In this document: in pieces, positions 10,031-63,329 of the stretch
How positions within the stretch are numbered: the stretch's first letter is position 1
Layout: every line of letters starts with the position of its first letter
NCBI GenBank assembly: GCA_020072785.1
Contig: JAIQGG010000008.1
Coordinates: 23,411 to 87,410, forward strand
Direction: 5' to 3'
Source: Terriglobia bacterium
GTDB lineage: Bacteria; Acidobacteriota; Terriglobia; Acidiferrales; UBA7541
DNA length: 64,000 bases
Program-made: the position numbers and the translations under genes
Notes under the pieces: generated by a model
What the model saw: the letters and a program-made list of their open reading frames with translations, nothing else
What the model was told of the DNA's origin: nothing
The model's database searches: none

Positions 10031-10050
10031 GTGACCGCGAACCGGTCAAC
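10031..10050 (+). repeat. Family A palindrome, copy 1 (variant)
   Basis: Reads GTGACCGCGAACCGGTCAAC. The stem is reduced to GACCG/CGGTC because the usual AAGC is AACC. It lies 68 bases upstream of the start of the large minus-strand gene, in antisense orientation to it. Confidence 0.7.
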
Positions 10051-10199
10051 ACTCAGGGCGCTCTGCATTCAGATGGTCCGGAGGCGGCGGTGGTTGGCCG
10101 GGCCACCCAGCAAGAAAGCCACCCCGCGAGAGGTTACACCACTCTCTGCGTGGCAACAAAGTAAAGAATAGGCGCTCTCGTGAGGAAATAAACTGGCGT

Positions 10200-10589
10200 T
10201 CAGCTTCCCGATGGGGGGAAAAAGATGTTCCAGAAGGCCGGGGCGCGCGCCGCAAACTCCACGGGAACGAGCGAGCCTTCGGAACTGAATTGCGGGGCGC
10301 GGGTGACGCTGGCGCCGAGGCGCTTCTGCGACGTGGGATTTTCCACGATCAGCCTGGTACCCAGGGGCAGCGGCTCGGAAAGCACCAGCATGGCCCCCAG
10401 TTCGTTCACGGCCACGGTCATGCCGTTGATCGAGTTCTGCTTGCCGGGCACGTGCAGGATCACCGGCATGCGCAGCATCACCCGCTGGCTGCGGCGGCGC
10501 TCTTCCAGCAGCATGGCGGGCTTCGTGGGCCCTTCGTCGGCCCTCGCGGGTCTTTGCAGTTTCTGCGGCGTTTTTTCCGGCAGTTTCAC
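10200..10589 (-). CDS. PilZ-like domain protein, degenerate c-di-GMP motif (second of a pair)
   Basis: 129 residues from a GTG at 10589. That GTG overlaps the TGA of the upstream PilZ-like gene (GTGA overlap), which implies translational coupling. Residues ~35-45 (ERRRSQRVMLRMPV) match the arginine-rich RxxxR entry of PilZ domains. The expected D/N-x-S-x-x-G strand appears as AVNELGAMLVLSEPLPLG, lacking the serine. Acidobacterial genomes carry many such short PilZ-like proteins; with this motif damaged, c-di-GMP binding is uncertain. The frame is open upstream to 10832, but that part overlaps the neighbour. Confidence 0.65.
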   Translation of the reverse strand: MKLPEKTPQKLQRPARADEGPTKPAMLLEERRRSQRVMLRMPVILHVPGKQNSINGMTVAVNELGAMLVLSEPLPLGTRLIVENPTSQKRLGASVTRAPQFSSEGSLVPVEFAARAPAFWNIFFPPSGS

Positions 10590-10930
10590 AGTTCCAACCC
10601 CCAGAAATCCATCTCCGGCGAGATCAGTTCCACGCCGTATTCCCAACCCTCCGGCCGTGCCTTGCCCTTCCAGACGACGACGGCGACGTTGCTGCTCTGC
10701 GTCGCCAGATTGGTGAGCGCCAGGCGGTGCTCGATCTCCAGAGACTGCGGCAGCACCACCATGCAGCCATAAGGATTGACGACCCGCGTATGGGCTTCCA
10801 GACGAATGCGCTTGCCGTCGGCGGCGTCCCATTCCAGGCGCACCGGCACGCGGGAGTTCATCCGCCTGCCACGGCGGCTTTCATTCGCTGGGAGTTCGAT
10901 CTTGCGTCCTTCTCGTGTAGGCACAGCCAT
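10586..10930 (-). CDS. PilZ-like domain protein (first of a pair)
   Basis: 114 residues. RRGRRMNSRVPVRLEW (from about residue 19) matches the PilZ arginine motif. The second motif reads VVNPYGCMVVLPQSL, with asparagine and glycine kept but no serine. A following strand (VAVVVWKGKARPEGWEYGVEL) fits the PilZ barrel. It is the first gene of a two-gene unit whose reading frames overlap by four bases. The two proteins resemble each other in fold and length, so an old duplication followed by divergence is plausible. c-di-GMP binding is not assured. Confidence 0.65.
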   Translation of the reverse strand: MAVPTREGRKIELPANESRRGRRMNSRVPVRLEWDAADGKRIRLEAHTRVVNPYGCMVVLPQSLEIEHRLALTNLATQSSNVAVVVWKGKARPEGWEYGVELISPEMDFWGLEL

Positions 10931-11062
10931 TCTCGGGACCCACTGACCATGCTAGAGTTGGCATTCGATGCGGTCAATAGTACCGGGTCGTAAGATACAT
11001 AGCTGTACCCAGGGACAGCGCACCCGGCCGCTCGCCGCTTGGATTCAGACACGGACATCTGT

Positions 11063-11086
11063 ATGCGCGACCGCGAAGCGGTCAAC
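11063..11086 (+). repeat. Family A palindrome, copy 2
   Basis: Core GACCGCGAAGCGGTC preceded by ATGCGC and followed by AAC, two bases before the TTG start of the ChbG/HpnK-like gene. Read as codons it gives MRDREAVNS and a TGA that overlaps the TTG start of the next gene (TTGA). Confidence 0.85.
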
Positions 11087-11088
11087 TC

Positions 11089-11976
11089 TTGAAAGCACTC
11101 ATCGTCAACGCCGATGACCTTGGCTGGACCGAGGACGTGAACCGCGGCATCGCCGAGGCTCACCGCCACGGCATCCTCACCAGCGCCTCCCTGCTGGCCA
11201 ATGGCACGGCCTTCGCCGGCGCGGTGCAGCTGGCGCGCCTCGAAACGCGGCTGGGCGTGGGCGTGCACCTCAACCTGAGTGACGGACCGCCCATTTTGCC
11301 GCCCGGGGAAGTGCCCAGCCTGGTCAACGGCGAAGGGATGCTGCGCGCCGGCCCGGGAACGCTCTTCGTGCGCCTGCTGCGTGGGCGCCTGCATCGGGCC
11401 GAAGTCGAACGGGAATGGGAGGCGCAGGTACGCAAAGTGCGCGACGCCGGTATTGCGCCCACGCATCTCGACGGGCACAAGCACGTGCACATGCTCCCGG
11501 GGCTGTTCGAGATTGCCGTGCGCATCGCGCGGCGCCACGGCATCCGCGCTATCCGCGTCGCGCTGGAAGCGCCGCAGCTCAGCGCGCTGTTGGACAAGGG
11601 CGCGCCGCGCGTTACGCCCGGCCCCGCCAGGCGTTTCACCAAGGCGCTCGCAGTGCGCGGCCTGCGTCTGCTGGCCAGGGACGCCCGGGAGGAGGCGCGC
11701 CGCGCGGGCCTCGTGACCTGCGATTTTTTCTGCGGCATCACGCAGACGGGCTTGCTGACGGAGAGTGGCGTGGCCACTCTGCTCGCCAACCTGCCGCCGG
11801 GCCTGACCGAGCTGATGACCCACCCCGGCTACGCCGGGGAGGAGCTGCGCCGCACCCCCACCCGCCTGCAGGACTCCCGCCAGGCCGAGCTGGCTATTCT
11901 GACGGCACCGGGGATTCGAAATCTTGTCGCCAGCCAGGGCATCCGCTTGCTACACTACGGCCTTGCAGCCGATTGA
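11089..11976 (+). CDS. ChbG/HpnK (YdjC) family carbohydrate deacetylase
   Basis: 295 residues. Opens with KALIVNADDLGWTEDVNRGI, the NADDLG motif of the family whose aspartates bind metal. The second metal motif HLDGHKHVHMLPGLF follows at about residues 124-138. GVHLNLSDGPP provides another conserved histidine. These metal-dependent enzymes remove acetyl groups from sugar amides; the HpnK subgroup is linked to hopanoid side-chain synthesis. The start is TTG at 11089, inferred because no ATG or GTG lies near the conserved beginning. The next gene, a GT2 glycosyltransferase, starts one base after its stop, so the two act in one operon. A pathway adding an N-acetyl sugar and then deacetylating it is a reasonable inference; the acceptor is unknown. 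Confidence 0.85.
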   Translation: MKALIVNADDLGWTEDVNRGIAEAHRHGILTSASLLANGTAFAGAVQLARLETRLGVGVHLNLSDGPPILPPGEVPSLVNGEGMLRAGPGTLFVRLLRGRLHRAEVEREWEAQVRKVRDAGIAPTHLDGHKHVHMLPGLFEIAVRIARRHGIRAIRVALEAPQLSALLDKGAPRVTPGPARRFTKALAVRGLRLLARDAREEARRAGLVTCDFFCGITQTGLLTESGVATLLANLPPGLTELMTHPGYAGEELRRTPTRLQDSRQAELAILTAPGIRNLVASQGIRLLHYGLAAD

Positions 11977-11977
11977 C

Positions 11978-13000
11978 ATGAAAAGCGAAAACGCCATTCA
12001 ATATTCTCTGGTCGTCCCGTTCTTTAACGAACAGGAGAACATCCCGCAGCTCTATCTGCACCTCACCGAAGTCATGGATGGGCTCGGCGGGACGTATGAG
12101 CTGGTGTTCATCGACGACGGCAGCCGGGACAATACCTACAAGGTGCTCCAAGACATCTTCGAGCACGACCGCCGGGTCAATCTGGTGCGGCTGCGCCGCA
12201 ACTTCGGGCAGACCGCGGCGCTGAAGGCGGGTTTCGATTTCGCGCGGGGCGACGTGATCATCTCCATGGACGGCGACCTGCAGCACGATCCCGACGAGAT
12301 CCCCAAATTCATCGAGAAACTGGAAGAGGGCTACGATCTGGTGAGCGGGTGGCGCGTGGCGCGCAAGGATCACTGGCTCACGCGGCGCCTGCCCAGCCGT
12401 GTCGCCAACTGGATGATGGCCAAGCTCTCCGGCGTCCCGGTGCACGATTTCGGAACCACCTTCAAGGCCTACCGCCGCGAGATCATCCAGGAAATCCAGC
12501 TCTACGGCGAGCTGCATCGCTTCATTCCCGCGCTGGCGGCCTCCGCCGGAGCGCGCATCGCGGAAGTGCCCATCGTCAATCTGGAGCGCAAGAACGGGAA
12601 ATCGAATTACGGCATCGGGCGCACCATCCGCGTCTTTCTGGACCTGCTGATCGTGAAGTTTCTCCTGGACTACTCCACGCGGCCGCTGCAGTTCTTCGGG
12701 CTGATGGGGATGTTCGGCTCGGGCACGGGGCTGCTGATCTGCCTGGTGCTGGCCTTCAAGAAGCTGTTCTACCATACGCAGTTGCTGGCGCAGCACGGCC
12801 CCTTGCTCCTGCTGGGCATCGCGCTGTTCGTGAGCGGAATTCAGTTCATGTCCATGGGGCTGCTCGGCGAGATGATGGCGCGCACCTACTACGAATCGCA
12901 GAACAAGCCGATTTACTCGCTGCGCGAAGTGAAGAGCCACCGCAAGGAGATGGGCGACTCGGCCGAGTCCGCCCGCCCCTCCGGCAGTTCCGACCGCTAG
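11978..13000 (+). CDS. Family 2 glycosyltransferase, DPM1/ArnC-like, with C-terminal membrane segments
   Basis: 340 residues from the ATG at 11978. The GT-A core shows YSLVVPFFNEQENI, FIDDGSRDNTY, a DGDLQHDPDEIP metal/nucleotide site (DxD type) and the acceptor segment DFGTTFKAYRRE. Two hydrophobic helices follow near residues 235-260 and 270-300, as in polyprenyl-phosphate glycosyltransferases. It probably moves a sugar from a nucleotide donor to a membrane lipid on the cytoplasmic face. Coupled with the preceding deacetylase (one-base gap). Confidence 0.85.
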   Translation: MKSENAIQYSLVVPFFNEQENIPQLYLHLTEVMDGLGGTYELVFIDDGSRDNTYKVLQDIFEHDRRVNLVRLRRNFGQTAALKAGFDFARGDVIISMDGDLQHDPDEIPKFIEKLEEGYDLVSGWRVARKDHWLTRRLPSRVANWMMAKLSGVPVHDFGTTFKAYRREIIQEIQLYGELHRFIPALAASAGARIAEVPIVNLERKNGKSNYGIGRTIRVFLDLLIVKFLLDYSTRPLQFFGLMGMFGSGTGLLICLVLAFKKLFYHTQLLAQHGPLLLLGIALFVSGIQFMSMGLLGEMMARTYYESQNKPIYSLREVKSHRKEMGDSAESARPSGSSDR

Positions 13001-13072
13001 CCCGCCCGCGGCGCTTCCCCGCTGCCGCATCCTTCCGGATTCAATGACAATTGGAGCTTTCCTGCGGCGGGA

Positions 13073-16000
13073 TTAGTCCGCGGTCTGCTGCGCGGCCTGC
13101 GGGGTTCCTCTGCGGAAGCTGCGCGTGATCCAGCTTTCGAATTGATCCATGTAGATGAAGACCGCCGGCGTCAGGTACAGCGTGACCACCTGCGAGAGCA
13201 GCAGCCCCCCCACCACGGCCAGGCCCAGCGGGCGGCGCGATTCCGCACCCGCGCCGTAGCCCAGGGCGATGGGCAGGGTGCCCATCAGCGCGGACATGGT
13301 GGTCATCATGATGGGGCGGAAGCGCACGATGCAGCCCTTGAAGATGGCCTCCGCGGGAGCCAGGTTGTCGTGGCGCTGCGCTGCCAGCGCGAAGTCGATC
13401 ATCATGATCGCATTCTTCTTTACGATGCCCACCAGCATGATCACGCCTACGAAACCGTACAGGTTCAGGTCGTAGTGAAACAGGTACAGCGTGAGCAGCG
13501 CCCCGAAACCCGCCGAAGGCAACCCGGAGAGAATCGTCAGGGGATGAATGAAGCTCTCGTAGAGAACTCCGAGAATAATGTAAATGACCAGGATGGACAT
13601 GAGCAGGAGTACGCCCAGCCCGGCGACCGAGGATTCGAAGGCCTGCGCGGTGCCCTGAAAACTGGTGGTGATGGTCGCGGGCAGTGTCGTTCGCGCCAGC
13701 TCGCTGACCTGGGCCACGCCGGTGCCCAGCGCCACGCCAGGCTTCAGGTTGAAGGAAAGCGTGACTGCGGGAAGCTGCCCGAGATGCGTGACCGCCAGCG
13801 GCCCCACCGACGGGCGCAGCCGCGCCACGGCGTCCAGGGGCACAAGCTGTCCCGTGCCAGAACGGATGTAAAGCAGCGGCAGGGCCGCGGGATCCCTCTG
13901 GTAGCGCGGCTCAAGCTCCATGATGACCCGGTACTCGTTCGTCGGGGTGTAGATGGTGGAAATCTGGCGGGCGCCGTAGCTGGTGTACAGCGCGTCTTCG
14001 ATCTGTGCCGCGGTCACCCCCAGCGCGGAGGCCTTGTCGCGGTCGATCAGCACGTCCACCTGGGGATTCTTGATCTGCATGTCGGTGTTGACGTCCTGCA
14101 GGCCGGGCAGCGTACGCGCCTTGGCTTCGAACTCCGCGGCCGCGCGGTACAGCGCGGTGGTCTCGGTGCTCTGCATGGTGAACTGGTAGAGCGCCTTGGT
14201 GAGCTGCCCGCCGATGCGGATGGGCGGCAGATTCTGCGGATAGGCGCGGATCCCCGGCACCACGGCGAGCTTCGGACGCAGATCCTCGATAATGCGGTCC
14301 ACGTGGGGCCGCGTGTTGCGCGGCGTCAGCCGAATGAACAGCCGGCCGGAGTTCGATCCGCCGGCGGCGCCCGACGAGCCGCCGCCGATGCTCGAGAAAG
14401 CGTTGGCCACGTAAGGCTGCTGCTGCACGATGGCCATGAGCTGCTTCTGATGCTCGGCCATGGCTTCGAAGGAGATGCCCTCCTGCGCTTCGGTAAAGAT
14501 AAATACCTGGCCGGTATCCTCGCTGGGCAGGAAGCCCTTGGGGATCACCCGGAAGAGCTCCACCGTCCCGGCCAGCATCAGCACGGAGAGCAACACCGTG
14601 GCCAAGCGGTGGCGCAGGGCGAAGCGCAGCGAGCCTTCGTAAGCGCGCTCCACCGCCTGGTATCCGTTTTCGAAGGAATTGTAGAGCCAACCGTGCTTCT
14701 GCTCGTGCGCGGAACGCAGGAAGCGGCTGCAGAGCATGGGCGTCAGGGTCAAGGAGACAAACCCGGAGACGAGAATGGCCATGCCGATGGTCACCGAGAA
14801 TTCGTGCAGCAGCCGGCCCAGAATCCCGCCCATGAACAGCACCGGCAGGAACACCGCGGCCAGCGACAAAGTCATCGACAGAATGGTGAAGCCGACCTCG
14901 CGCGCCCCGCGGAAGGCCGCCTCCATCACCGGCTCACCCGCCTCCATGTGGCGGACGATGTTCTCCAGCATGACGATGGCGTCGTCCACGACGAAGCCGA
15001 CCGAGAGCGTCAGCGCCATCATGGAGAGGTTGTCCACGGAATAACCGAGCAGGTACATCACGGCAAAAGTGCCAATGATGGACATGGGCACGGCCAGGCT
15101 GGGTATGACGGTGGCGGAGAGATTGCGCAGGAACAGGAAGATGACCAGGATGACCAGAGCGATGGTCAGCAGCAGCGTGGTTTTGACGTCGTGCACCGAA
15201 TCGCGGATGGAGACCGAGCGATCATAGAGGATTTCGAGCTTCACCGAGGGCGGGATCTGCGCGCGGTAGACGGGCATGAGCCGCTTGATGGAATCCACGA
15301 CCTCGACGGTATTGGTGCCCGGTTGCCGCTGCACGGCCAGAACGATGGCGCGTTCGCCGTTGAACCAACTGGCCACCTTATCGTTCTCCACGCTGTCCAG
15401 GACGCTGCCGACATCAGCGAGGCGCACCGGCGAGCCCCCGCGGTAGGCCACGATGAGCGACCGGTAAGCCGCCGCGTTGGTGAGCTGCCCCGTGGCCTGC
15501 ACGGTCACCGCGCGGTGCTGCCCCCAGAGCGTGCCCGTGGGCAGATTGACGTTGCCCTGCTGCACCGCCTTTTGCACCTCGTCCACGCCGATGCCACGGC
15601 TGGCCAGCTTGCGCGGATCGAGCTGCACGCGCACGGCATACTTCTGCGCGCCGTAGACGCTGACCTGGGCCACGCCGCTGATGGTCGAGATGCGCTGCGC
15701 CAGATAGGTCTCGGCGAACTCGTCCACCAGAGAAAGCGGCAGGCTCGGCGAGGACATCGCGATGTACAGAATGGGCTGGTCCGCCGGGTTGACCTTAAAA
15801 AACGACGGTGGGGCGGGCATGTTCTGCGGCAACTGCGCGCCCGCCTGGGTGATCGCGGTTTGCACGTCCTGGGCCGCGCCATCCAGGTTGCGGTTGAGGT
15901 TGAACTGCAGGGTGATCTGCGTGGTGCCGAGCTGATTCACCGAGGACATCGAATCCAGGCCCTGAATCGTGGAGAACTGCTTTTCCAGCGGAGTGGCCAC

Positions 16001-16180
16001 GCTCGAGGCCATGGTCTCCGGGCTGGCGCCCGGCAGCGCCGCAAACACCTGAATCGTCGGAAAATCCACGTTGGGCAAGTCGCTCACCGGCAGGATGCGG
16101 TAGGCGAACAGGCCGAAGAATAGAATCGCCAGCATCACCAGGGTGGTGGCAATCGGGCGGCGAATGAAGAGATCAGACAT
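13073..16180 (-). CDS. RND efflux transporter, HAE1-type inner membrane permease
   Basis: 1035 residues, the normal size for AcrB/MdtB-type pumps. Begins MSDLFIRRPIATTLVMLAIL (TM1), followed by a periplasmic porter domain with the LPNVDFPTIQV segment. The proton-relay aspartate pair is present in TM4 (GFVVDDAIVMLENIVRH), and the typical repeat structure continues to ~1020. It exports hydrophobic drugs or metabolites using the proton gradient. It lies 12 bases after the membrane fusion protein gene, in the same operon. No TolC-like outer membrane gene is in the window, so the outer channel must come from elsewhere. Confidence 0.95.
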   Translation of the reverse strand: MSDLFIRRPIATTLVMLAILFFGLFAYRILPVSDLPNVDFPTIQVFAALPGASPETMASSVATPLEKQFSTIQGLDSMSSVNQLGTTQITLQFNLNRNLDGAAQDVQTAITQAGAQLPQNMPAPPSFFKVNPADQPILYIAMSSPSLPLSLVDEFAETYLAQRISTISGVAQVSVYGAQKYAVRVQLDPRKLASRGIGVDEVQKAVQQGNVNLPTGTLWGQHRAVTVQATGQLTNAAAYRSLIVAYRGGSPVRLADVGSVLDSVENDKVASWFNGERAIVLAVQRQPGTNTVEVVDSIKRLMPVYRAQIPPSVKLEILYDRSVSIRDSVHDVKTTLLLTIALVILVIFLFLRNLSATVIPSLAVPMSIIGTFAVMYLLGYSVDNLSMMALTLSVGFVVDDAIVMLENIVRHMEAGEPVMEAAFRGAREVGFTILSMTLSLAAVFLPVLFMGGILGRLLHEFSVTIGMAILVSGFVSLTLTPMLCSRFLRSAHEQKHGWLYNSFENGYQAVERAYEGSLRFALRHRLATVLLSVLMLAGTVELFRVIPKGFLPSEDTGQVFIFTEAQEGISFEAMAEHQKQLMAIVQQQPYVANAFSSIGGGSSGAAGGSNSGRLFIRLTPRNTRPHVDRIIEDLRPKLAVVPGIRAYPQNLPPIRIGGQLTKALYQFTMQSTETTALYRAAAEFEAKARTLPGLQDVNTDMQIKNPQVDVLIDRDKASALGVTAAQIEDALYTSYGARQISTIYTPTNEYRVIMELEPRYQRDPAALPLLYIRSGTGQLVPLDAVARLRPSVGPLAVTHLGQLPAVTLSFNLKPGVALGTGVAQVSELARTTLPATITTSFQGTAQAFESSVAGLGVLLLMSILVIYIILGVLYESFIHPLTILSGLPSAGFGALLTLYLFHYDLNLYGFVGVIMLVGIVKKNAIMMIDFALAAQRHDNLAPAEAIFKGCIVRFRPIMMTTMSALMGTLPIALGYGAGAESRRPLGLAVVGGLLLSQVVTLYLTPAVFIYMDQFESWITRSFRRGTPQAAQQTAD

Positions 16181-16192
16181 GCCGGAATCCGC

Positions 16193-17350
16193 TCAGGAAC
16201 CGGACTTCGGGGCGACGTGCGAGCCGTTGAGGAGCCGGAGCTGCCCGTCGGTCACCACGGTTTCGCCGGCGTGCAGCCCTGCTTCCACGATGGTTTCCCC
16301 GCCTACGGTGCGCCCCACGGTAACGTTGCGCATCTCCGCGGTGTTGTCGGGCTTGACCACGAAGACGAACGAGCCGCTCTGGCTAGTGCTGATCGCCTGC
16401 GACGGCACGACTAGGGCATGCGGCTGGGTCGTCAGCGTCAGGACCACGGTGACAAACTGCCCGGGCCACAATCGCCGCTGCGTGTTGGCAAAGGTGGCCT
16501 TCAGCCGGATCGTGCCGGTGGTGTAGTCCACGACGTTGTCCACAAAAGAGAGCGTGCCCTGTTCCGAGACATTCGGCTGATCAGGAATCATAGCCGTCAC
16601 GCGCATTTTGCGCTCGGCGTGGTAGCGCTTGACGTCGGCAAGATTCTGCTCGGGAATCGCAAACGTCACATAAATGGGCGTGATCTGGTTGATAGTCACC
16701 AGAATGGGCACGTCGTTGGCCTTGGTCAGGTTGCCGGGGCGGACCAGCACGCTGCCCGTGCGCCCGTTGATCGGCGAGCGGATTTCGCAATACTGCAGAT
16801 TCAGCCGCGCCGATTCGATGGCCGCGCGGTCGGACTGCACCACGGCTTCCTGTGCCTCGGCGTCGGCGCGTTGCGTGTCGTACTGCAGCTTGGGGACAAT
16901 GCCCTGCTCGAAGAGGTTCTGATAGCGCTCGGCCAGCACGCGCGCATTCTGCGCTTTGGCCTGGTCGCGGGCGAGATCCGCCTGCGCCTGCTTCAAGGCC
17001 ACTTCAAACGGGCGCTTGTCGATTTCGAACAGCAGCTCGCCCTTGTGGACGTCCTGGCCCTCCAGGAAATGCACAGCCATCACCGGGCCGGTCACCTGGG
17101 CCTTGATGGACACGCTGGCGAGGGCCTCCACATTCCCGATGGCGCGCAGCTCGACCGGAACGTCCTTCTCCACGGCCTGGGCGACCACCACCGGCACGGC
17201 GGGCGCTGCCGGAGCCGCGGCCTGCGGCTTCCCGCAGCCGGCAAACAACAGCGCGGCGAACCCCAGACCCACAGCGGCCAGCGCGGGGCGCCTTACGGCG
17301 GCAGGCAGCCGCCGGACATTTCGAAACAAGGTCGACCGCTTCGCGGTCAT
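16193..17350 (-). CDS. RND membrane fusion (periplasmic adaptor) lipoprotein
   Basis: 385 residues from the ATG at 17350. A hydrophobic stretch ends in LLFAGC, a lipobox with Cys near residue 39, so the protein is likely lipid-anchored. Then come the biotinyl-lipoyl-like half motifs (LEGQDVHKGELLFEID and EIRSPINGRTGSV) flanking an alpha-helical hairpin, and a beta-barrel domain (VTAMIPDQPNVSEQGTLSFVDNVVD). This is the HlyD/AcrA adaptor layout. The ATG lies inside a family A palindrome, so the first seven codons (MTAKRST) are repeat-derived; a start at 17371 is also open. The partner permease follows. Confidence 0.9.
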   Translation of the reverse strand: MTAKRSTLFRNVRRLPAAVRRPALAAVGLGFAALLFAGCGKPQAAAPAAPAVPVVVAQAVEKDVPVELRAIGNVEALASVSIKAQVTGPVMAVHFLEGQDVHKGELLFEIDKRPFEVALKQAQADLARDQAKAQNARVLAERYQNLFEQGIVPKLQYDTQRADAEAQEAVVQSDRAAIESARLNLQYCEIRSPINGRTGSVLVRPGNLTKANDVPILVTINQITPIYVTFAIPEQNLADVKRYHAERKMRVTAMIPDQPNVSEQGTLSFVDNVVDYTTGTIRLKATFANTQRRLWPGQFVTVVLTLTTQPHALVVPSQAISTSQSGSFVFVVKPDNTAEMRNVTVGRTVGGETIVEAGLHAGETVVTDGQLRLLNGSHVAPKSGS

Positions 17351-17354
17351 GCAT
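17331..17354 (-). repeat. Family A palindrome, copy 3, at a gene start
   Basis: On the minus strand: ATGCAT, then GACCGCGAAGCGGTC, then GAC. The adaptor gene's likely ATG (17350) is within it, so this repeat supplies codons 1-7. Confidence 0.85.
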
Positions 17355-17612
17355 ACGATTGAGGGCATCATCTCGTCTTGATATCGGATTCGACTTGCGT
17401 CGGGAACGGCCTGGATCTCCGTCTGGACTTCCTGCTTAACCAGCAGTCACGGGCAGAAATATTCTCCTATCGCTCTTCCTACCACATAGATGCGGCCAGC
17501 AACGAACCGGTTTCATGAAATCCGCCCCTCTATCCAAGGGGCTGACCGCTGCGCTCCGGGACGCCTGGCGCCGCGCTCGATCCTTTCTTTCGCAACCCGA
17601 TTGCGCCAGCCT

Positions 17613-17640
17613 GTAGCCCGGGCAAGCTCGTTTTCCGGGG
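17613..17640 (+). repeat. GTAG-type REP-like palindrome
   Basis: GTAG at 17613-17616 is followed by CCCGGGCAAGC and, after a short spacer, CCGGGG. It lies immediately downstream of the flavin reductase stop, in the 296-base gap between that gene and the RND operon. Confidence 0.45.
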
Positions 17641-35393: not shown

Positions 35394-35766
35394 GTCGTGC
35401 CTGCCGCCTTTCCAGCCAAAGCCGTACCCAGCCCCATGCCCGCTCGCACCGCGTGCCCGGATCCCCGATCCCAAACAAGTTCTAGCCTAGGTTCGCCCCG
35501 CCGAATTCGTCAAGCTTCTTCGCGCCGGAGAGTAAACACACCTCCGCCTCGTCATCACAATCTGCTGCTGAATTTTTTAAAGGGAAAAACGCCCGACTGC
35601 GTGTCCAGATCCGCTCCCGCGCCGGCACCCTGCGGATTGCCGTCGAGTCGCCGGAAGAATCGGTGCACATCGCGTGCCCGCTGGCCGCCCGTTGACCGCT
35701 TCGCGGTCGCTCAAAACATCGACGGCCTTTCCTCGGAGCTGGAGGCCCGCCGCCCCGCGGCCCGAC
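35394..35766. other. 373-base spacer with a possible gene remnant
   Basis: No full gene seen. On the plus strand, bases ~35555-35695 can be read as a plausible 45-residue tail (…ARLRVQIRSRAGTLRIAVES…) that stops at a TGA inside the family A palindrome at 35691. It has no start codon, so it is at most a fragment. Confidence 0.3.
35691..35714 (-). repeat. Family A palindrome, copy 6
   Basis: GTTGACCGCTTCGCGGTC on the plus strand with a diverged right flank (GCTC). Lies between two minus-strand genes. Confidence 0.8.
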
Positions 35767-37830: not shown

Positions 37831-37857
37831 ATGTAGGCGTGACCGCGAAACGGTCAA
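37831..37857 (+). repeat. Family A palindrome, copy 7 (variant)
   Basis: ATGTAGGCGT precedes GACCGCGAAACGGTC and AAC. It lies five bases upstream of the ABC permease ATG, antisense to it. Confidence 0.8.
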
Positions 37858-38298
37858 CGCGGTTCTGTGCGTACTCTAACATCCCTGTTTCGAGCGGGTC
37901 AAAAAAACCGCGAGCAAAAAATGGCAGGGAGCGTCCCATGTGCAAGCCGTGTGCCGAACCCGCTGTCCGTATTTTTCTCTTCTGTAAATTTCAACACTTG
38001 TGTTGAAAACCATGTGGAAAAGCACGCCTCGTTCCCCGCTAACTCTACGCGGCTCAACACCCTGATGCGGTTTGCACAATTAGAGGGCAATGCCCAAGCA
38101 AGAAAGTTTCATCGCGTGACAGTTGGATCGTGAAAAGGTCAGGAACGGAACAAAACATTCCGCTGGGCAAAAAAAGTCGCTGCACACTGCCGCACGATTT
38201 GCTCTCTTCAACGGTTCCCCGGTTCAACCGTTCAACTCTTTCACTCTTCGACTCTTACTCTCTTGAACTCTGCGGCTTTTTTCTCTGCCGCCCGCGCC
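37858..38298. other. 441-base spacer with palindrome and CAACTCTT-like tract
   Basis: No gene supported. Contains a 9-bp inverted repeat with a 2-base centre at 37989-38008 (TTTCAACAC, TT, GTGTTGAAA). Further on (38209-38272) lies a pyrimidine-rich run of loosely repeated ACTCTT/TTCAAC units. The base composition is more AT-rich than the neighbouring genes. Confidence 0.45.
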
Positions 38299-52419: not shown

Positions 52420-52449
52420 GTGAAGGAAAACGGGCACGGCGTCCTTTGT

Positions 52450-52473
52450 ATGCGTGACCGCAAAGCGGTCAAC
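52450..52473 (+). repeat. Family A palindrome, copy 10
   Basis: ATGCGT, then GACCGCAAAGCGGTC, then AAC, in the spacer between hutI and ftcD. Confidence 0.85.
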
Positions 52474-55777: not shown

Positions 55778-55946
55778 GATTATTCGCGAGGGAGACGTCG
55801 CACGCCTCCCGGCAATCCGGACAGTAGTAAAGGCCGTCCACGCACAAGCGAATGCCTATCTGTCCCTGGCAAATGGTGCAGTACTTCTCGCAATTGCAAT
55901 CGCTTTCGGTTTTGCCGCAGACGTCGCAAAGGATCGGACCGGCCAT
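55767..55946 (-). CDS. Tiny cysteine-rich zinc-ribbon protein
   Basis: 59 residues from the ATG at 55946, with ten cysteines: CDVCGKTESDCNCEKYCTICQGQ and YYCPDCREACD. Pairs of CxxC at both ends suggest two structural zinc sites (treble-clef or rubredoxin-like knuckles). It overlaps the RsbW-like gene by 11 bases and reads into it, so the two are probably translated together. It could bind the partner protein or nucleic acid; no family is recognised. Confidence 0.6.
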   Translation of the reverse strand: MAGPILCDVCGKTESDCNCEKYCTICQGQIGIRLCVDGLYYCPDCREACDVSLANNRDH

Positions 55947-56058
55947 GACTGCCTCCAAAGCCACTGTAGCCGAGCGGGTGGAGCGCGGCAAGATGCGCGT
56001 TCGGGCCTGCGCACAATCCGGCATGTGCGCGAAGCCGCCGAGCGGGTAGTGGTACAGT

Positions 56059-56086
56059 TTGGGAAAATCGAGAAGAAGCCTATAAT
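56059..56086 (+). promoter_or_regulatory. Promoter of the AT-rich gene
   Basis: TTGGGA (56059-56064) and TATAAT (56081-56086) with a 16-base spacer; the GTG start at 56095 would be nearly at the transcript's 5' end. Confidence 0.45.
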
Positions 56087-56094
56087 CCTCTCCA

Positions 56095-56721: not shown

Positions 56722-57229
56722 TTATTAATTCTTCGATAGTCCAAACATGATCTGTAACTCCGGCTTCCATTGCCGGAGTTACAGGCAATGTCTGGTGCAC
56801 GCGACAGAAATTGTAGTGCATATAGTGAAGGGCAACCGCGTGTCCATGATTCTCGATCTTCTTAGAGAATCCGTTCGTTAGGCGAGTGAATCGGCGCATC
56901 TGCATACGCATCGTAAGGTTCTGGCGCTCGACAAAGCTTGTAGAAATATCCTTGGGCTTGGGGTTTCCAGTAATCGCCACGGAGCGACAACTAATGCACT
57001 CTGCGGGGCTATAGCGGGCCTCGGTTTCGCGGTCATTCCCGTACAGCTTGACCAGCATCACGTAGTCAATCTCAGAGCCGAATGCGGATTCCACAGCTTG
57101 CAAATAGAGGCGGTGGCCATCTGTCGTTAACCGGACTCGATTGGCGAGCCGTCCCGCTAGGTCGTGCATGAATTCGTAGGCTGTGCCTGCCCCGCCGGCG
57201 GGCTTCCTTGACTCGCTCTGGAGCGCATG
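56687..57229 (-). pseudogene. Truncated DDE transposase remnant (IS1-like group)
   Basis: The minus strand encodes the C-terminal part of a transposase: HDLAGRLANRVRLTTDGHRL, a catalytic-region aspartate in TTDGH, FVERQNLTMRMQMRRFTRLT, a KKIENHGHAVALHYMHYNFCRVH segment and the closing MEAGVTDHVW. The open frame begins right after an in-frame stop at 57230-57232, so the N-terminal half (usually a zinc-finger DNA-binding part) is missing. Inverted repeats at the edges were not identified. This is a broken, non-autonomous remnant. It ends 40 bases before the gcvT start and marks a former insertion event next to the AT-rich gene. Confidence 0.75.
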
Positions 57230-57268
57230 TTACGTTCAACTTCTTTCCGAGAGCTTCGAGCGCAGCGC

Positions 57269-58465
57269 ATGGAATCTCAGACATCTCCCCCAACGCAACT
57301 TCGTAAAACTCCGCTGAACGCCGTGCACCGCCGCATGGGCGCGAAGATGGTGAACTTCGGCGGCTGGGATATGCCCGTGGAGTACCCGGCGACGGGCGGG
57401 CTGCTGGCGGAGCACCGCGCGGTGCGCGGGGCCGTGGGCGTTTTCGACGTCAGCCACATGGGCGACATCCGCATCCGCATGGGGCGCACGCCGGGCGGCG
57501 CGCTGGCCGCGGTGCAGCACATCAGCATGAACGACGCCGCGCAACTGGCCATCGGCCAGGCGCACTACTCGGCCATGCTCTATCCCCAAGGCACGTTCGT
57601 GGACGATGTGATCGTGCACCGGCTGGGCACGGACGACTACCTGCTGGTCATCAACGCCGGAACACGCGAGAAAGACATCGCCTGGGTGCGGCAGAACACC
57701 GCGGGGTTCGACTGCGTGGTGGAGGACCTCAGCGACGCGTACACGCAGATCGCCATCCAGGGGCCGCGCGCCGCGGAGCTGCTGCAGAAGCTGACCGACG
57801 CGAATCTCGCGCCGCTCAAGAACTACTGGTTCACGCACGGCACGGTCTGCGGCCTGGCTAACATTCTCATCGCGCGCACCGGCTACACCGGAGAGGACGG
57901 CTTCGAGATTTACGTACCCTCCGATCCGGCAACCAGCGAAAACGTGTGGAACCGCGTGCTGGAGGCCGGCCAGGAGTTCGGCATCCTGCCCTGCGGCTTG
58001 GGCGCGCGCAACACGCTGCGCCTGGAAGCCAAAATGGCGCTATACGGGCACGAGATCAGCGAGACAATCAACGTTTGGGAAGCCGGCCTCGACCGCTTCT
58101 GCAAGATGGAGAAGGGCGACTTTATCGGGCGGGCCGCGCTGGAACGCGCCAGGGCTGCCGGACTGACGCGCACGCTGGTGGGGCTGGAGATGATCGAGCG
58201 CGGGATCGCCCGCGACGGGTACCACGTGTTCAGCGAGACCGGCGCGGAGATCGGCGCGGTGACCAGCGGCTCCCCTTCGCCGACGCTGGGCAAGAATATC
58301 GCCCTGGCCTACGTGCCACCGGCGGAAGCCGCGCTGGGACGCATCGTTCTAGTGGAAGTGCGGAATCAGAAGGTGAAGGCGCAGGTGGTGGCGACGCCGT
58401 TTTACAAGCGCGCGCGGAAAGCCGCCGCGCCGGGTGTGACCCCGCAGACGGCGCAGCGCGCCTGA
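57269..58465 (+). CDS. gcvT: Glycine cleavage T protein (aminomethyltransferase)
   Basis: 398 residues from the ATG at 57269. [51 protein letters not shown] and [19 protein letters not shown] are standard GcvT folate- and H-protein-binding segments. It takes the aminomethyl group from lipoyl-GcvH, releases ammonia and forms 5,10-methylene-THF. It is the first of four genes. The broken transposase ends about 40 bases upstream, so the native leader (often a glycine riboswitch in other bacteria) is not present. Confidence 0.96.
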
Positions 58466-58486
58466 GAGATCGCCAAGGAGAGGCAG

Positions 58487-58882
58487 ATGGCTTATCCGCC
58501 GCAATACCGCTACACGAAAGAGCACGAGTGGATCCAGGTGCAGGGCGATCTGGCCACCATCGGCATCACGGACTACGCGCAGCAGGAGCTGGGCGACGTG
58601 GTCTTCGTGGAGCTGCCCAAGCCCGGGAGCAAAATCGCCGCCGGCAAATCCTTCGGCACGGTGGAATCGGTGAAGGCCGTCAGCGAGATCTACGCGCCCG
58701 CCGCGGGAGAGGTCGTGGAGGCCAACGCCGCCCTCGGCGAGGCCCCGGAAAAGATCAACCAGGACCCGCACGGCGCCGCGTGGCTCATCAAGGTGCGCCT
58801 GGCGAATCCCGCCGAGATCAGCGGGCTGATGGACGCCGCGGCCTATGAAGCCTACATCGCCGCGAAGGCCAAGGAACACTAG
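58487..58882 (+). CDS. gcvH: Glycine cleavage H protein
   Basis: 131 residues. [32 protein letters not shown] and the lipoylation site [19 protein letters not shown] with acceptor lysine K63. It carries the aminomethyl intermediate on its lipoyl arm between the P, T and L proteins. A clear ribosome site (AAGGAGAGG) lies upstream and it follows gcvT by 21 bases. The lipoamide dehydrogenase (L protein) is not in the window. Confidence 0.97.
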
Positions 58883-58887
58883 GCCGG

Positions 58888-60234
58888 ATGCGCTACCTCC
58901 CCAAAAGCCCGGCCGAACGGCAGGCGATGCTCACGGCCATCGGCGTGCAATCGGTGGACGAGCTGTTTGCCGGGATTCCCGAGCGCTACCACCTGCGCGA
59001 AGCCCTGGCGCTTCCCGCGGCGCATTCGGAAGCGGAGATCATCGCGTACTTCAAGGAGCGCGCGGCGGAGAATGCGCTGGGCTACGCGAGTTTTCTCGGC
59101 GCGGGCGTTTACCGGCACCTGCAATCGGTGGTCACCGACGTGATCCTGCAGCGCGGCGAATTCCTGACGTCCTATACGCCGTACCAGGCGGAGATCAGCC
59201 AGGGCACGCTGCAAGCCATCTTCGAATTCCAAACCCTGATGTGTCAGCTCACCGGGCAGGAAGTGGCCAACGCCTCGATGTACGACGGCTCGACGGCCAC
59301 CACCGAAGCGGTGCTGATGGCCGAACGCGTGACCGGGCGGCGGCGCGTGCTGGTGGCGCGCTCCGTACACCCGGAATACCGGCAGGTGCTGCGGACCTAC
59401 GCGAAAAATTGCGGCTTGCAGGTGGAGGAGATCGGATACGGCGCGGCGGGCACGCTGGACGCCGCGGCGCTAAAGGCCGCGCTGCGGGACGATGTGGGTG
59501 CGGTGGTCGTGCAGTCGCCGAATTTCTTCGGCTGCCTCGAGCCGGTGGAGAAGCTGGCGGGTGAGGCGCACCCGGCGGGGGCGCTGCTGGTGGTGGCCAT
59601 TACCGAAGGCGTTTCGCTGGGCCTCGTGCGGCCGCCGGCGGAAGCGGACATCGTGGCGCTGGAGGGGCAAAGCTTCGGGCTGGCGCCGAGCTACGGCGGA
59701 CCTTCGCTGGGCGTGCTGGCCACGCGGGATAAATATGTGCGGCAGATGCCGGGGCGGCTCGCGGGGCAGACCACGGACAGCGAAGGGCGCCGCGGCTTTG
59801 TGCTGACGCTGGCCACGCGCGAGCAGCACATCCGGCGCGAGAGGGCCACCTCCAACATCTGCACGAACCAGGCGCTGTGCGCGCTGGCCGCCACGGTCCA
59901 CCTGTGTCTGCTGGGCAAAGAGGGCCTGCGCGAGATGGCCCACCAGAACCTGTCCAAAGCGCAGTTCGCGCTCGCTGAACTCGAGAAGATTCCCGGGGTG
60001 CGCCGCGTTTTTTCCGCGCCGTTTTTCAACGAATTCACCGTGGAGCTGCCGCGTTCGGTGCGCATGCTCAACGGCGACCTGCTGCGCGAGAAGATTGTCG
60101 GGCCCTTCGTGCTGGGCACGGACTATCCGGAGCTGACCAAGCACGCGCTGGTGTGCGTGACGGAGACGGCCACGCGCGCGGAGATCGAACGGCTGGCACG
60201 GGCGCTGCGCAGTGCGCTGGAGCGGCCGGTTTAA
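58888..60234 (+). CDS. gcvPA: Glycine decarboxylase P protein, subunit 1
   Basis: 448 residues, the N-terminal half of the split (two-subunit) P protein. Starts [19 protein letters not shown] five bases after gcv[45 protein letters not shown] and [19 protein letters not shown] are typical. The alpha2beta2 form is the common one in Acidobacteriota and Firmicutes. Subunit 1 pairs with the PLP-binding subunit 2 to decarboxylate glycine. A REP-like palindrome separates it from the subunit 2 gene. Confidence 0.96.
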
Positions 60235-60235
60235 C

Positions 60236-60262
60236 GGGACAGGCACGAATGCCTGCCCCACA
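60236..60262 (-). repeat. Imperfect REP-like palindrome between gcvPA and gcvPB
   Basis: CAGGCA-CGAA-TGCCTG with GGG/CCC outer arms, then CCAC in place of CTAC. It starts two bases after the gcvPA stop. Confidence 0.5.
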
Positions 60263-60271
60263 GGAAACCAC

Positions 60272-61759
60272 TTGAGCGAGCGGATCAAGAAAGCATCGCG
60301 GCACCCGAGCCAGAATGAAGGGTTGATCTTCGAGAAATCCTCGCCGGGCAAGCGCGGTTTCGAGCTGCCGCCGCTGGACGTTCCCGCGGCCGACGCCGCG
60401 CGGGCGCTCGGCGCGCAGCACCGCGCGGGCGGGGTGGCGGGCTTGCCCGAAGTGAGCGAGATCGAAGTGCTGCGCCACTTCACGCGGCTTTCCACGTGGA
60501 ATTTCGCCATCGATCTGGGCATGTATCCGCTGGGCTCCTGCACCATGAAGTACAATCCGCGGGTGAACGAATTCGTGGCGCGGCTCGAGGGCCTCGCCAC
60601 CGAGCATCCCTATCAGCCGCAGGCGCTTTCGCAGGGCTGCCTGAAGATTCTGCGGCTGCTCGAAAAATGTCTGCTGGAAATCACCGGCATGGACGCCATC
60701 ACGCTGCAGCCCGCCGCGGGCGCGCACGGCGAGCTGACCGGGATGCTGCTGATCCGCGCGTACCTGGAAAAGCAGGGCCACCCGCGCAAGAAAGTGCTCA
60801 TCCCGGACTCCGCGCACGGCACGAACCCCGCCTCGGCGGTGATCGCGGGCTACGAAGTGGAGAACATCAAGTCCGAAGCGCACGGGCAGATCGACGTGGA
60901 GAAGCTGCGCGAGCTGGTGACCGAAGACGTCGCCGCGCTGATGATCACCAACCCCTCGACGCTGGGCATCTTCGAACAGCGCATCCCCGAGATCGCGGAG
61001 ATTCTGCACGCCAAGGGCGCGCTGCTGTACATGGACGGCGCGAACATGAACGCGCTCGCGGGCATCACCCGCCCGGGCGATCTCGGCGTGGATGTCATGC
61101 ACCTCAACCTGCACAAGACGTTTTCGACGCCGCACGGCGGCGGCGGCCCCGGCGCGGGCCCCGTGGCCATCAAGAAGATCCTCGAGCCGTTCCTGCCTGT
61201 GCCGGTGCTGGTCGAAAGGCCGGACGGCAAGCTGGCCCTGGACGCCCATCGCAAGGATTCCATCGGGCGGGTGCGCGCCTTCACCGGGAACTTCGGCGTG
61301 CTGGTGCGCGCGCTAGCCTACATCCTGGCGTACGGCCCGGGCATCCGCCAGGCCACGGAAGACGCCGTGGTCAACGCCAATTACATCCGCAAGCAGCTCG
61401 AAGGCGTTTACGATCTGCCTTATTCCCTGCCCTCGATGCACGAAGTGGTCTTCAGCGACGCCAAGCAGAAGCAAAACGGCGTAAGCACCATGGACATTGC
61501 CAAGCGCCTGATCGACTACGGCTTCCATTCCTACACCACGGCGTTTCCGCTGATCGTGCCCGGGGCCATGATGATCGAGCCGACGGAATCGGAATCCAAG
61601 GAAGAGTGCGACCTGTTCATCGACGCCATGCGCGCCATTGCGGAAGAGGCGGCGACGAATCCCGAGCTGGTGAAGACCGCGCCGCACACCACGCGCGTGC
61701 GCCGGCTCGACGAAGTGGCCGCGGCGCGCAAGCCCATCCTGCGCTGGAAGCCCGCCTGA
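60272..61759 (+). CDS. gcvPB: Glycine decarboxylase P protein, subunit 2 (PLP-binding)
   Basis: 495 residues from a TTG at 60272 with AGGAAA upstream; the frame is open to 60212 but that part overlaps gcvPA and the palindrome. YPLGSCTMKYNPRVNE, LQPAAGAHGELTGMLLIRAYLE, PDSAHGTNPASAV and the PLP lysine in MHLNLHKTFSTPHGGGGPGAGPV identify it. It decarboxylates glycine and loads the aminomethyl group on GcvH. Last gene of the gcvT-H-PA-PB set. Confidence 0.96.
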   Translation: MSERIKKASRHPSQNEGLIFEKSSPGKRGFELPPLDVPAADAARALGAQHRAGGVAGLPEVSEIEVLRHFTRLSTWNFAIDLGMYPLGSCTMKYNPRVNEFVARLEGLATEHPYQPQALSQGCLKILRLLEKCLLEITGMDAITLQPAAGAHGELTGMLLIRAYLEKQGHPRKKVLIPDSAHGTNPASAVIAGYEVENIKSEAHGQIDVEKLRELVTEDVAALMITNPSTLGIFEQRIPEIAEILHAKGALLYMDGANMNALAGITRPGDLGVDVMHLNLHKTFSTPHGGGGPGAGPVAIKKILEPFLPVPVLVERPDGKLALDAHRKDSIGRVRAFTGNFGVLVRALAYILAYGPGIRQATEDAVVNANYIRKQLEGVYDLPYSLPSMHEVVFSDAKQKQNGVSTMDIAKRLIDYGFHSYTTAFPLIVPGAMMIEPTESESKEECDLFIDAMRAIAEEAATNPELVKTAPHTTRVRRLDEVAAARKPILRWKPA

Positions 61760-61847
61760 CCTGAAACGTTGTCCTCCCCAGGCCCCGTGCGAGTCGGGAC
61801 CTCCGAATGAAAGCTCTCTTGATTTATTAAGCGGGTGGGAACTGCGC

Positions 61848-63329
61848 TCAGTGCGCGAAGCGCACGGAATCGAGGACGTTGACGAACGCGCTGTCGTAGT
61901 TGCTGTAGTCGCGCTCGGGGGCGACGCAGATGAAATAGAGCAGGCCCTCGGGGCGCAGCACGGTGATGATCCAGTCGGTCTCCTGGCCGCCCAGCGGAGA
62001 ATCGTTGCTCAGGTAGGTGGAGAGCGCGCGCTGGCCGTTCAAACGCACGCGCTGCGGCTGGCGGGCGATGCGCATGCCGGGATTGCCATGCTGCAGGTCG
62101 TCAAGCAGCCGGCGGGTGGACTCTTCCAGAACATTCGCGGCATTGGGGTCGCCGTGCGGGTCGGCGACATTGATGATCATGCCGTAGGCCAGGGCGTCCT
62201 GGCCGTTGCGGTCTGGCGCCACGCCGCCCTCTGGCGCGAAGGAGACGGCCTGGCCCTCGCCGTACTTCTTCCAGTTGTCGGGATACTTGAGGCTCAAGGC
62301 GCTGCCCTGATAAGCCGCGTATTGGCCGGAGGGAGCCGCGGGCTTTCCCGCGGCGCCGCCGGGCGCTTCGCGCTTGTCTTTGACAACCGGCAGGGCCAGC
62401 ACTTCGTGGCGGATGGCCTGAAACTCCGCGGAATCGCGGCGGGCGTTGGCGGGCGGCCCGCCGAGCCGGTCGATCTCCTCGTCCACGCGCTCGACGCGAT
62501 GCTCGGGACTGGGGTGGTCGGAAAAAAATTCCGGGGGATTTTTGCCCTTGCTCTCGGCCTCCAGCTTTTCGAAAAACTGGGCCATGGCCCGGGGGTCATA
62601 GCCAGCATCGTAGAGGATTTGCGTGCCCATCACGTCCGCCTGGGTCTCCGCGGTGCGCGAATATTTCAGCAGCACCGATCCGGCGCCGAAGGCCCCGAGC
62701 TGGGTAACCAGCGAGCCCATGGCGCTGCCGCCCAGTATGCCGCCGAGAATGGCGATGGGCAGCGACGCCGCCTGGGCCTTGGTGGCCTGGCTGGTGCCGT
62801 GGCGCAGCGCCACGTGGGAAAGCTCGTGGGCCATGACCGCGGCGAGCTGGGCTTCGTTGTCGGCAGCCTCGATGGTGCCGCGATTGACGAAGACGTAACC
62901 TCCAGGCAAGGCGAAGGCATTGATGGCCTTGTTGTTGACGCAGTGGAATTCGAAGGGATACTGCACGCCGCCGGTCGGGGCCTTGGCGGCCAGGCGCTTG
63001 CCGAGTTGCGTCAGATAGGCGTCCACCTTGGGGTCGTTGCACAGCGGCAGTTTCTTCTCGGCGTCCTGCGCGGCCTTTTGTCCGACCTGCACGTCCTGCT
63101 GCGGCGAGAAGATATTCCAGCCGGGGCGGAACTGCGTTCGCTGTCCCTGCTGCGCGTACGCTCCGGGAGCTCCGCCCAGGAGCAGCGCCGCAGCCAGGGC
63201 CACGCCCACCGCCAGAAATCTGCAGACAGCGCCGAAGGAATGTTTTGCCTCGGCCCTGCGCGGCAGACTCGCGCTGCGCCCTTCCTGGACCTCTATATGC
63301 GTGACCGCGAAGCGGTCAACATGCACCAT
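61848..63329 (-). CDS. M48-family zinc metalloprotease, secreted
   Basis: 493 residues if it starts at the ATG at 63329, which places a family A palindrome inside codons 3-11 (VDRFAVTHI). A hydrophobic signal segment follows (FLAVGVALAAALLLGGAPG). Zinc site AVMAHELSHVALRHG (HExxH), third ligand region YSRTAETQADVMGTQIL, and a C-terminal domain with no clear family (ALSLKYPDNWKKYGEGQAVSF). BepA/LoiP-like M48 proteases assist outer-membrane assembly. The start is uncertain because the upstream frame stays open to 63434. Confidence 0.88.
   Translation of the reverse strand: MVHVDRFAVTHIEVQEGRSASLPRRAEAKHSFGAVCRFLAVGVALAAALLLGGAPGAYAQQGQRTQFRPGWNIFSPQQDVQVGQKAAQDAEKKLPLCNDPKVDAYLTQLGKRLAAKAPTGGVQYPFEFHCVNNKAINAFALPGGYVFVNRGTIEAADNEAQLAAVMAHELSHVALRHGTSQATKAQAASLPIAILGGILGGSAMGSLVTQLGAFGAGSVLLKYSRTAETQADVMGTQILYDAGYDPRAMAQFFEKLEAESKGKNPPEFFSDHPSPEHRVERVDEEIDRLGGPPANARRDSAEFQAIRHEVLALPVVKDKREAPGGAAGKPAAPSGQYAAYQGSALSLKYPDNWKKYGEGQAVSFAPEGGVAPDRNGQDALAYGMIINVADPHGDPNAANVLEESTRRLLDDLQHGNPGMRIARQPQRVRLNGQRALSTYLSNDSPLGGQETDWIITVLRPEGLLYFICVAPERDYSNYDSAFVNVLDSVRFAH
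63297..63320 (+). repeat. Family A palindrome, copy 11, within the M48 gene's 5' end
   Basis: Perfect consensus: ATGCGT, GACCGCGAAGCGGTC, AAC. Antisense to the M48 gene and inside its likely first codons. Confidence 0.9.

What the first reader, a model, noticed from the sequence alone, without database searches (positions are those of the whole stretch)
10031..63320. Dispersed stable-hairpin palindrome family (family A), at least eleven copies
Seen: eleven matches at 10031, 11063, 17331, 19012, 19039, 35691, 37831, 40253, 43736, 52450 and 63297. The form is ATGCGT, then GACCGCGAAGCGGTC, then AAC; six or seven base pairs close over a GAA or AAA triloop. Several copies extend the left side as TGTATGCGT. 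Established: the DNA heptamer GCGAAGC is known as an exceptionally stable mini-hairpin. Inference: such a unit would fold readily as single-stranded DNA or RNA and might spread by a single-strand mechanism or serve as a protein-binding or RNA-processing site. One copy per ~6 kb would mean hundreds per genome. I do not know a named family of this form.
Basis: partly seen in the sequence, partly recalled or inferred. Interest (0 to 1): 0.75.

Follow-up and report, generated by a model that had tools for sequence, protein, structure and literature searches.

The report
Mobile 27-base hairpin repeat
A 27-base DNA hairpin has copied itself into hundreds of places in the genome of an uncultured soil Acidobacterium, slotting in cleanly after a short preferred sequence and stacking head to tail, which would make it one of the smallest mobile DNA units known, moved by an enzyme not yet identified.

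Summary
The window has the 11 listed copies plus a decayed twelfth. The genome has 207 exact cores against 1 for the reversed control, and 336 copies within 3 mismatches. The family is confined to one genus of subdivision-2 Acidobacteria: 338 copies in a sister species, 144 in a third, near background in most others. Comparison with the sister species (91% identical DNA) shows clean presence/absence with gaps of 27, 54, 81 or 162 bases and no target duplication. The unit is exactly 27 nt: an 8-nt leader (about TNTATGTG), then TGACCGCRAAGCGGTCAAC. It lies 3' of a preferred target (T/A)CN(T/A)(C/T); most empty sites already carry the C and the final pyrimidine. The unit's own 3' end, TCAAC, fits the same rule, which would explain head-to-tail arrays of period 27. 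Because 27 is 9 codons, copies also sit in frame inside genes. Both species have private copies, so it moved recently. The layout matches IS200/IS605 single-strand logic, but no cognate enzyme was found: Y1 genes have other flanking repeats; reverse transcriptase and Y2 genes are absent in the two richest genomes. Membership tests for GTAG REPs, REPINs, CGTC REPs and class-3 hairpins fail. Mobile unit: well supported. Single-strand mechanism: inferred.

The parts
10024..10050 (+). 27-nt unit, one stem mismatch; sister genome has 2 units here and one more unit close by
11060..11086 (+). 27-nt unit, exact core; sister genome has 2 units at this place
17331..17357 (-). 27-nt unit, exact core; shared with sister genome
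19012..19038 (-). 27-nt unit, loop AAA, second member of a head-to-tail pair; longer array in sister genome
19039..19065 (-). 27-nt unit, first member of the pair (period 27)
35691..35717 (-). 27-nt unit, exact core
37832..37858 (+). 27-nt unit, one stem mismatch; shared with sister genome
40253..40279 (-). 27-nt unit, loop AAA
43729..43755 (+). 27-nt unit with compensated stem pair (GGCCGC/GCGGCC)
52447..52473 (+). 27-nt unit TGTATGCGTGACCGCAAAGCGGTCAAC after target TCCTT; shared with sister genome
63294..63320 (+). 27-nt unit, exact core, after target ACCTC

Best explanation
Family A is a non-coding mobile element of exactly 27 nt: 5'-TNTATGTG-TGACCGC-RAA-GCGGTCA-AC-3'. SHOWN: it is present or absent as whole units (27n bases) without target duplication; it lies 3' of a degenerate target (T/A)CN(T/A)(C/T), and most empty sites already carry the target C and final pyrimidine; its own 3' end (TCAAC) obeys that target rule; arrays are head to tail with period 27; sister species each have private copies. 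INFERRED: an enzyme acting in trans folds the unit strand as single-stranded DNA, cuts after the target-like sequence 5' of the leader and after TCAAC at the unit's 3' end, and joins the 27-mer 3' of another such sequence, in the manner of IS200/IS605 (5' cleavage site in the flank, 3' cleavage site inside the end), with one hairpin serving both ends. Insertion behind an existing copy would give the arrays; local duplication or slippage accounts for the rest (roughly a third by leader similarity). Inside genes the insertion adds nine in-frame codons and is often tolerated. The enzyme is not identified.
For: Copy number 207 exact / 336 near, controls 1 / 3. Spike of indels of exactly 27 bases between G000 and G007 (16; neighbouring lengths 26 and 28: 1 and 2), most holding the unit, plus 54, 81 and 162. 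16 cleanly aligned filled/empty pairs, 6 private to G000 and 10 to G007; empty sites have C at -12 in 12/16 (p=0.0005 against 32%) and a pyrimidine at -9 in 13/16. Logo of 206 first/single units: -13 T53 A27, -12 C80, -10 T60 A20, -9 T48 C39, then leader, with a sharp right edge after AAC. 107 close same-strand neighbours are exactly 27 apart, against 16 at other distances up to 120; only 3 close pairs are inverted. Stem pairs covary: T-A to C-G 25 seen, 5.9 expected; A-T to G-C 9 seen, 1.9 expected. Unit strand is the locally G-rich strand at 76 of 121 loci in G000 (20 kb, p=0.006) and 37 of 52 in G007 (p=0.003); no bias against gene strand; that is the direction expected for the lagging-strand template. 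IS608 logic from PMC5934647.
Against: No enzyme found: no Y1 gene inspected has family A at its flanks, and the G000/G007 Y1 proteins are only about 65-76% identical in genomes 91% identical. Covariation between leader and target, expected if a guide pairs with the target, was weak and inconclusive. GC skew in this draft genome is noisy and the bias vanishes at 80 kb; the G000 and G007 loci largely overlap, so the two tests are not independent. Several empty sites do not fit the target well (AAGCC, AGCTT). Without an outgroup, gain and loss cannot be told apart for single loci.
Confidence: 0.6

Rival explanations
1. The unit spreads through an RNA copy (as has been proposed for cyanobacterial small dispersed repeats): a short hairpin RNA is reverse transcribed into nicked DNA.
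For: Size and hairpin are like those reported for cyanobacterial SDR elements (own knowledge; reference confirmed). No target duplication seen.
Against: No RVT_1 domain in G000 or G007, the two genomes richest in copies, while several copy-poor genomes have several. The conserved target lies 5' of the unit on the unit strand, as in IS200/IS605 transposition.
Confidence: 0.1
2. The copies are binding sites for a regulator or nucleoid protein, kept and multiplied by selection.
For: Near-perfect 7-bp inverted repeat with 3-bp spacer; strong intergenic enrichment (63 of 88 loci in about 15% of the sequence).
Against: Loop (RAA), AAC tail and leader are conserved asymmetrically; no preferred distance or orientation to genes; precise 27-bp insertions, some inside reading frames; copy number falls from 336 to background within one genus.
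Confidence: 0.12
3. Cleavage and transfer are done by an ordinary Y1 transposase of the genome (RAYT or TIRYT) acting on a non-cognate hairpin.
For: Y1 genes exist in G000, G007 and G005; flexible cleavage-site choice is known for some TnpAREP (PMC8266576).
Against: Each Y1 gene inspected is flanked by its own repeats (GTAG REPs or GCGGGTGGCCC/GGTGCCCC inverted repeats). The subclass common to G000, G007 and G005 was not found in G010, G023 and G025, which hold 27-39 copies, and is present in copy-poor G008, G012 and G013.
Confidence: 0.2
4. Tandem-repeat slippage and unequal recombination alone made the family.
For: Some arrays have identical leaders, e.g. a block of 6 extra units in G007; adjacent leaders are more alike than random (0.61 against 0.48).
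Against: Does not explain single units at new places with a target rule; most adjacent leaders differ (46 of 49 and 54 of 58 pairs).
Confidence: 0.03

Closest known systems
SDR elements, very small mobile repeats of 21-27 nt in Nostoc (Elhai et al. 2008, Genome Res 18:1484; paper not held, content from own knowledge; SDR5 insertion into HIP1 from PMC4390886)
   Same: Same size class, hairpin, high copy number, precise insertion into a short target sequence.
   Different: Different phylum; here head-to-tail arrays of exact period and a unit end that equals the target; sequences were not compared directly.
GTAG-tagged REPs and their RAYT transposases
   Same: 20-40 nt palindromes, mostly intergenic, hundreds of copies, single-strand hairpin; cut sites on both sides.
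   Different: No GTAG/GTGG foot, no flanking RAYT, almost no inverted pairs; the mobile unit is one hairpin, not a doublet.
CGTC-tagged REPs
   Same: Short hairpins without a dedicated transposase (PMC3733652).
   Different: No CGTC foot; 7-bp stem with 3-nt loop, not 8-9 bp with 4-5 nt.
IS200/IS605 insertion sequences (IS608)
   Same: Insertion 3' of a short target kept in the left flank, 3' cleavage sequence inside the right end (TCAA in IS608, TCAAC here), hairpins, no target duplication.
   Different: No gene inside, one hairpin for both ends, 27 nt long, enzyme unknown.
Class 3 TnpA hairpins of Solibacter and others (PMC6006769)
   Same: Acidobacteria, about 600 hairpins in one genome, atypical foot.
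   Different: Foot there is CnGA beside the enzyme gene; neither found here.
Rickettsia RPE
   Same: Palindromic repeats inserted in frame in proteins.
   Different: RPE end in CGTC (PMC3733652); to my knowledge they are also much longer.

Membership tests
GTAG REP / RAYT system | GTAG or GTGG tetranucleotide at the 5' foot of the hairpin | tested here: not met
   Foot consensus is TGYG; positions -4..-1 T60 G67 T44/C38 G91
GTAG REP / RAYT system | Cognate Y1 transposase gene flanked by the repeats | tested here: not met
   No unit within 1 kb of the Y1 genes inspected; they carry other repeats
GTAG REP / RAYT system | Extragenic location | tested here: met
   63 of 88 loci intergenic, about 15% of bases are; a minority inside genes
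REPIN | Mobile unit is an inverted doublet of two REPs | tested here: not met
   Only 3 inverted close pairs; single 27-nt units are present or absent as such
CGTC REP | CGTC foot, stem 8-9 bp, loop 4-5 nt | tested here: not met
   TGYG foot, 7-bp stem, 3-nt loop
SDR-type very small mobile repeat | Repeat of about 21-27 nt, dispersed, with precise insertion | tested here: met
   27-nt unit with empty sites
SDR-type very small mobile repeat | Sequence relation to the cyanobacterial SDR families | not tested
   Original paper not held
IS200/IS605-like transposition | Insertion 3' of a short target, no target duplication | tested here: met
   Target (T/A)CN(T/A)(C/T), 16 clean sites; the target is more degenerate than that of IS608
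IS200/IS605-like transposition | Guide sequence pairs with the target | tested here: inconclusive
   Weak mutual information, many comparisons
IS200/IS605-like transposition | Y1 HUH enzyme cuts the unit strand | not testable with these tools
   Biochemistry needed; no candidate gene
Class 3 TnpA hairpin | CnGA foot next to a class 3 TnpA gene | tested here: not met
   Foot TGYG; the Y1 proteins of G000 and G007 carry the Y-motifs YMHANPV, YMHRNPV and YIRMNPV, not Y----Q
Integron attC | Integron integrase IntI in the genome | tested here: not met
   No TIGR02249 match above cut-off in 12 genomes
IS91 / Helitron-like rolling circle | Y2 HUH transposase | tested here: not met
   No PF04986 match in G000, G007, G005

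The most novel reading that the evidence does not exclude
A 27-nt hairpin is a complete, precisely bounded mobile unit whose 3' end is also its own target, moved through single-stranded DNA by an enzyme outside the known Y1 (IS200/RAYT), Y2, integron and reverse-transcriptase partners; it would be the shortest single-strand transposable unit defined to the base by natural empty sites.
Probability: 0.35. Interest if true: 0.82.

Novelty: new variant of a known kind. Interest (0 to 1): 0.64.

Why it matters
How very small repeats spread is a long-standing question: REP singlets have been read as dead remnants of doublets, and CGTC REPs and SDRs have no proven enzyme. Here unit length, boundaries, target and copy-number changes can be read directly from two sister genomes, so the mechanism becomes testable with short oligonucleotides. 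The 27-nt length also makes it a frame-neutral source of nine-residue insertions in proteins.

Tried and rejected
RAYT partner by PF01797 search and flank inspection: rejected by position and distribution. Reverse transcriptase, Y2 transposase, integron integrase: absent or below cut-off in the copy-rich genomes. Larger parent element: no repeated segment of 150 bp or more in 1.57 Mb is associated with the unit, one unit lying within 150 bp of a single such segment. Plasmid or virus origin: no hit. Known RNA family: none. Coding origin (MRDREAVN reads as a peptide in the window): rejected because most copies are intergenic with varying frames. Genes flanked on both sides by units look ordinary (selB-like, rpsF, rnhB-like), no candidate enzyme. 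Guide-target covariation: inconclusive.
Full report
OBSERVATION. The eleven copies are real: 25 hits with up to 3 mismatches against 7.1 expected, none of 100 shuffles reaching that. In the whole genome (G000, 3.73 Mb) the core GACCGCRAAGCGGTC occurs 207 times against 1 for the reversed control, and the 19-mer TGACCGCRAAGCGGTCAAC with up to 3 mismatches 336 times against 3.

DISTRIBUTION. Exact cores occur only in the same genus among 60 relatives: 207 in G000, 154 in G007, 51 in G005, 8-16 in a few, 0-4 in the rest. A scan of GTDB genomes found the 19-mer almost only in soil Acidobacteria subdivision 2 MAGs (JAIQEV01, QHYP01, QHYF01 and others), with a few scattered single hits elsewhere. Contig lengths show that JAIQEV01 is G007. 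So the family expanded within one genus.

UNIT. The logo of 206 first or single units has a sharp right edge after AAC and a weaker conserved leader of 8 nt, T-N-T-A-T-G-T/C-G. Alignment of G000 with G007 (328 kb of aligned columns, 90.8% identical) gives a spike of indels of exactly 27 bases (16, against 1 of 26 and 2 of 28), most with the unit inside, and further indels of 54, 81 and 162. Examples: GCCCTT[TGCAAGTGTGACCGCAGAGCGGTCAAC]ACGCG against GCCATT|ATACG; TTCCTC[TATTTCTGTGACCGCCAGGCGGTCAAC]CCGTATTCGCG against TTCCTC|CGCTATTCGCG; ACAGT[81 nt, three units]CCAAGCCG against ACAGT|TCCAGCCG. No target duplication is visible. Of 16 cleanly aligned filled/empty pairs, 6 are private to G000 and 10 to G007, so the family has changed in both lineages since the split, on either reading of gain and loss.

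TARGET. The five bases 5' of the unit read (T/A)-C-N-(T/A)-(C/T): -13 T53% A27%, -12 C80%, -10 T60% A20%, -9 T48% C39%. In the 16 empty sites -12 is C in 12 (p=0.0005 against 32%) and -9 a pyrimidine in 13, so the preference belongs to the target, not to the element. The last five bases of the unit, TCAAC, obey the same rule. This predicts insertion directly behind an existing unit, that is, head-to-tail arrays of exact period 27, and that is what is seen: 107 close same-strand neighbours are 27 apart against 16 at any other distance up to 120, and only 3 close pairs are inverted. Adjacent leaders usually differ (100 of 107 pairs) but are more alike than chance (0.61 against 0.48; core 0.885 against 0.867). 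A simple mixture suggests about a third local duplications and two thirds independent insertions (inference; constraint on the core could mimic part of it). One array grew by six near-identical units in G007.

STRUCTURE. The unit folds as a 7-bp stem with a 3-nt loop as single-stranded DNA (-7.5 kcal/mol). Double, pair-keeping substitutions exceed expectation at the two variable outer pairs (25 against 5.9; 9 against 1.9); sub-families inherited as such would give the same signal.

CONTEXT. 63 of 88 loci are intergenic though about 84% of random positions fall inside predicted genes. There is no orientation or clear distance preference relative to genes. Against local GC skew there is a preference: the unit strand is the G-rich strand at 76 of 121 loci in G000 (20-kb windows, p=0.006) and 37 of 52 in G007 (p=0.003), while majority gene strand shows none. 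This is the side expected for the lagging-strand template, which IS200/IS605 elements target (PMC6006769, abstract; the link from skew to replication is own knowledge), but the skew is noisy, the bias vanishes at 80 kb in G000, and the two genomes share loci. About 20 near-perfect units lie inside well-scored genes without breaking the frame (27 nt = 9 codons), most often read as VDRFAVT on the opposite strand; a PilZ-like gene at C1:574.4-576.5 kb carries five. G007 has nine extra codons of this origin in a frame that G000 lacks (L040).

ENZYME. Three Y1 (PF01797) genes exist in G000 and one in G007. One lies among GTAG REPs (GTAGGCGCCGGGCTTTAGCCCGGC); two of G000, that of G007 and one of G005 lie between their own inverted repeats (GCGGGTGGCCC... 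and GGTGCCCC...), as described for acidobacterial TIRYTs in PMC3733652. None is flanked by family A. The G000 and G007 proteins of the shared subclass are about 65-76% identical, low for orthologues in genomes 91% identical. The shared subclass was not found in G010, G023 and G025, which hold 27-39 copies, and is present in copy-poor G008, G012 and G013. No reverse transcriptase in G000 or G007, no Y2 transposase there, no integron integrase above cut-off. No larger parent element in 1.57 Mb, nothing in plasmids or viral contigs.

MECHANISM. Best reading: single-strand transfer of a 27-mer. In IS608 insertion is 3' of TTAC, which stays in the left flank and is needed for excision, while the right cleavage sequence TCAA is at the right end; guide tetranucleotides sit 5' of the hairpins (PMC5934647). 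The unit here has the same layout compressed onto one hairpin: target-like sequence in the left flank, TGYG 5' of the stem, TCAAC at the right end. What is shown is the layout and the presence/absence of whole units; the enzyme, the single-stranded intermediate and a guide role of TGYG are inferred, and the covariation test for a guide was inconclusive.

COMPARISON. GTAG REPs, REPINs, CGTC REPs and class 3 hairpins each fail a defining feature that was tested. The nearest in kind are the 21-27 nt SDR elements of Nostoc (Elhai et al. 2008; known to me and cited in the papers; the paper itself could not be read). The family is therefore filed as a new variant of very small mobile hairpin repeats, not as a REP.

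Noticed in passing
window 46010, 47268, 51104, 52535 (minus strand), 34849 (plus strand): GTAG-tagged hairpins of ordinary REP type (e.g. GTAGCCGCCCTCTTCAGAGGGCGG, GTAGCGCGGGGCGCCAGCCCCGCG, GTAGGGGCACGGCACGCCGTGCCC); 56 in 1.57 Mb against 4-33 for control tetranucleotides.
   Followed up: partly
G000 C1:420.3-421.3 kb (L156): A canonical REPtron: Y1 gene with GTAGGCGCCGGGCTTTAGCCCGGC-type hairpins on both sides.
   Followed up: partly
G000 C2:747.4 kb, C1:581.4 kb; G007 C59:61.1 kb; G005 C301:0.9 kb: Y1 genes between inverted repeats GCGGGTGGCCC and GGTGCCCC, TIRYT type.
   Followed up: partly
G000 C2:69.3-70.0 kb: Family A pairs sit on both sides of rpsF (ribosomal protein S6); the sister genome has pairs at the same places.
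   Followed up: no
G000 C1:574394-576521: PilZ-like protein gene with five in-frame units, including VDRFAVTHG-type peptides three times in tandem.
   Followed up: no
G017, G018, G030: A different repeated sequence TGTCCGCGAATCGCTCAAC recurs in these relatives; not a palindrome.
   Followed up: no
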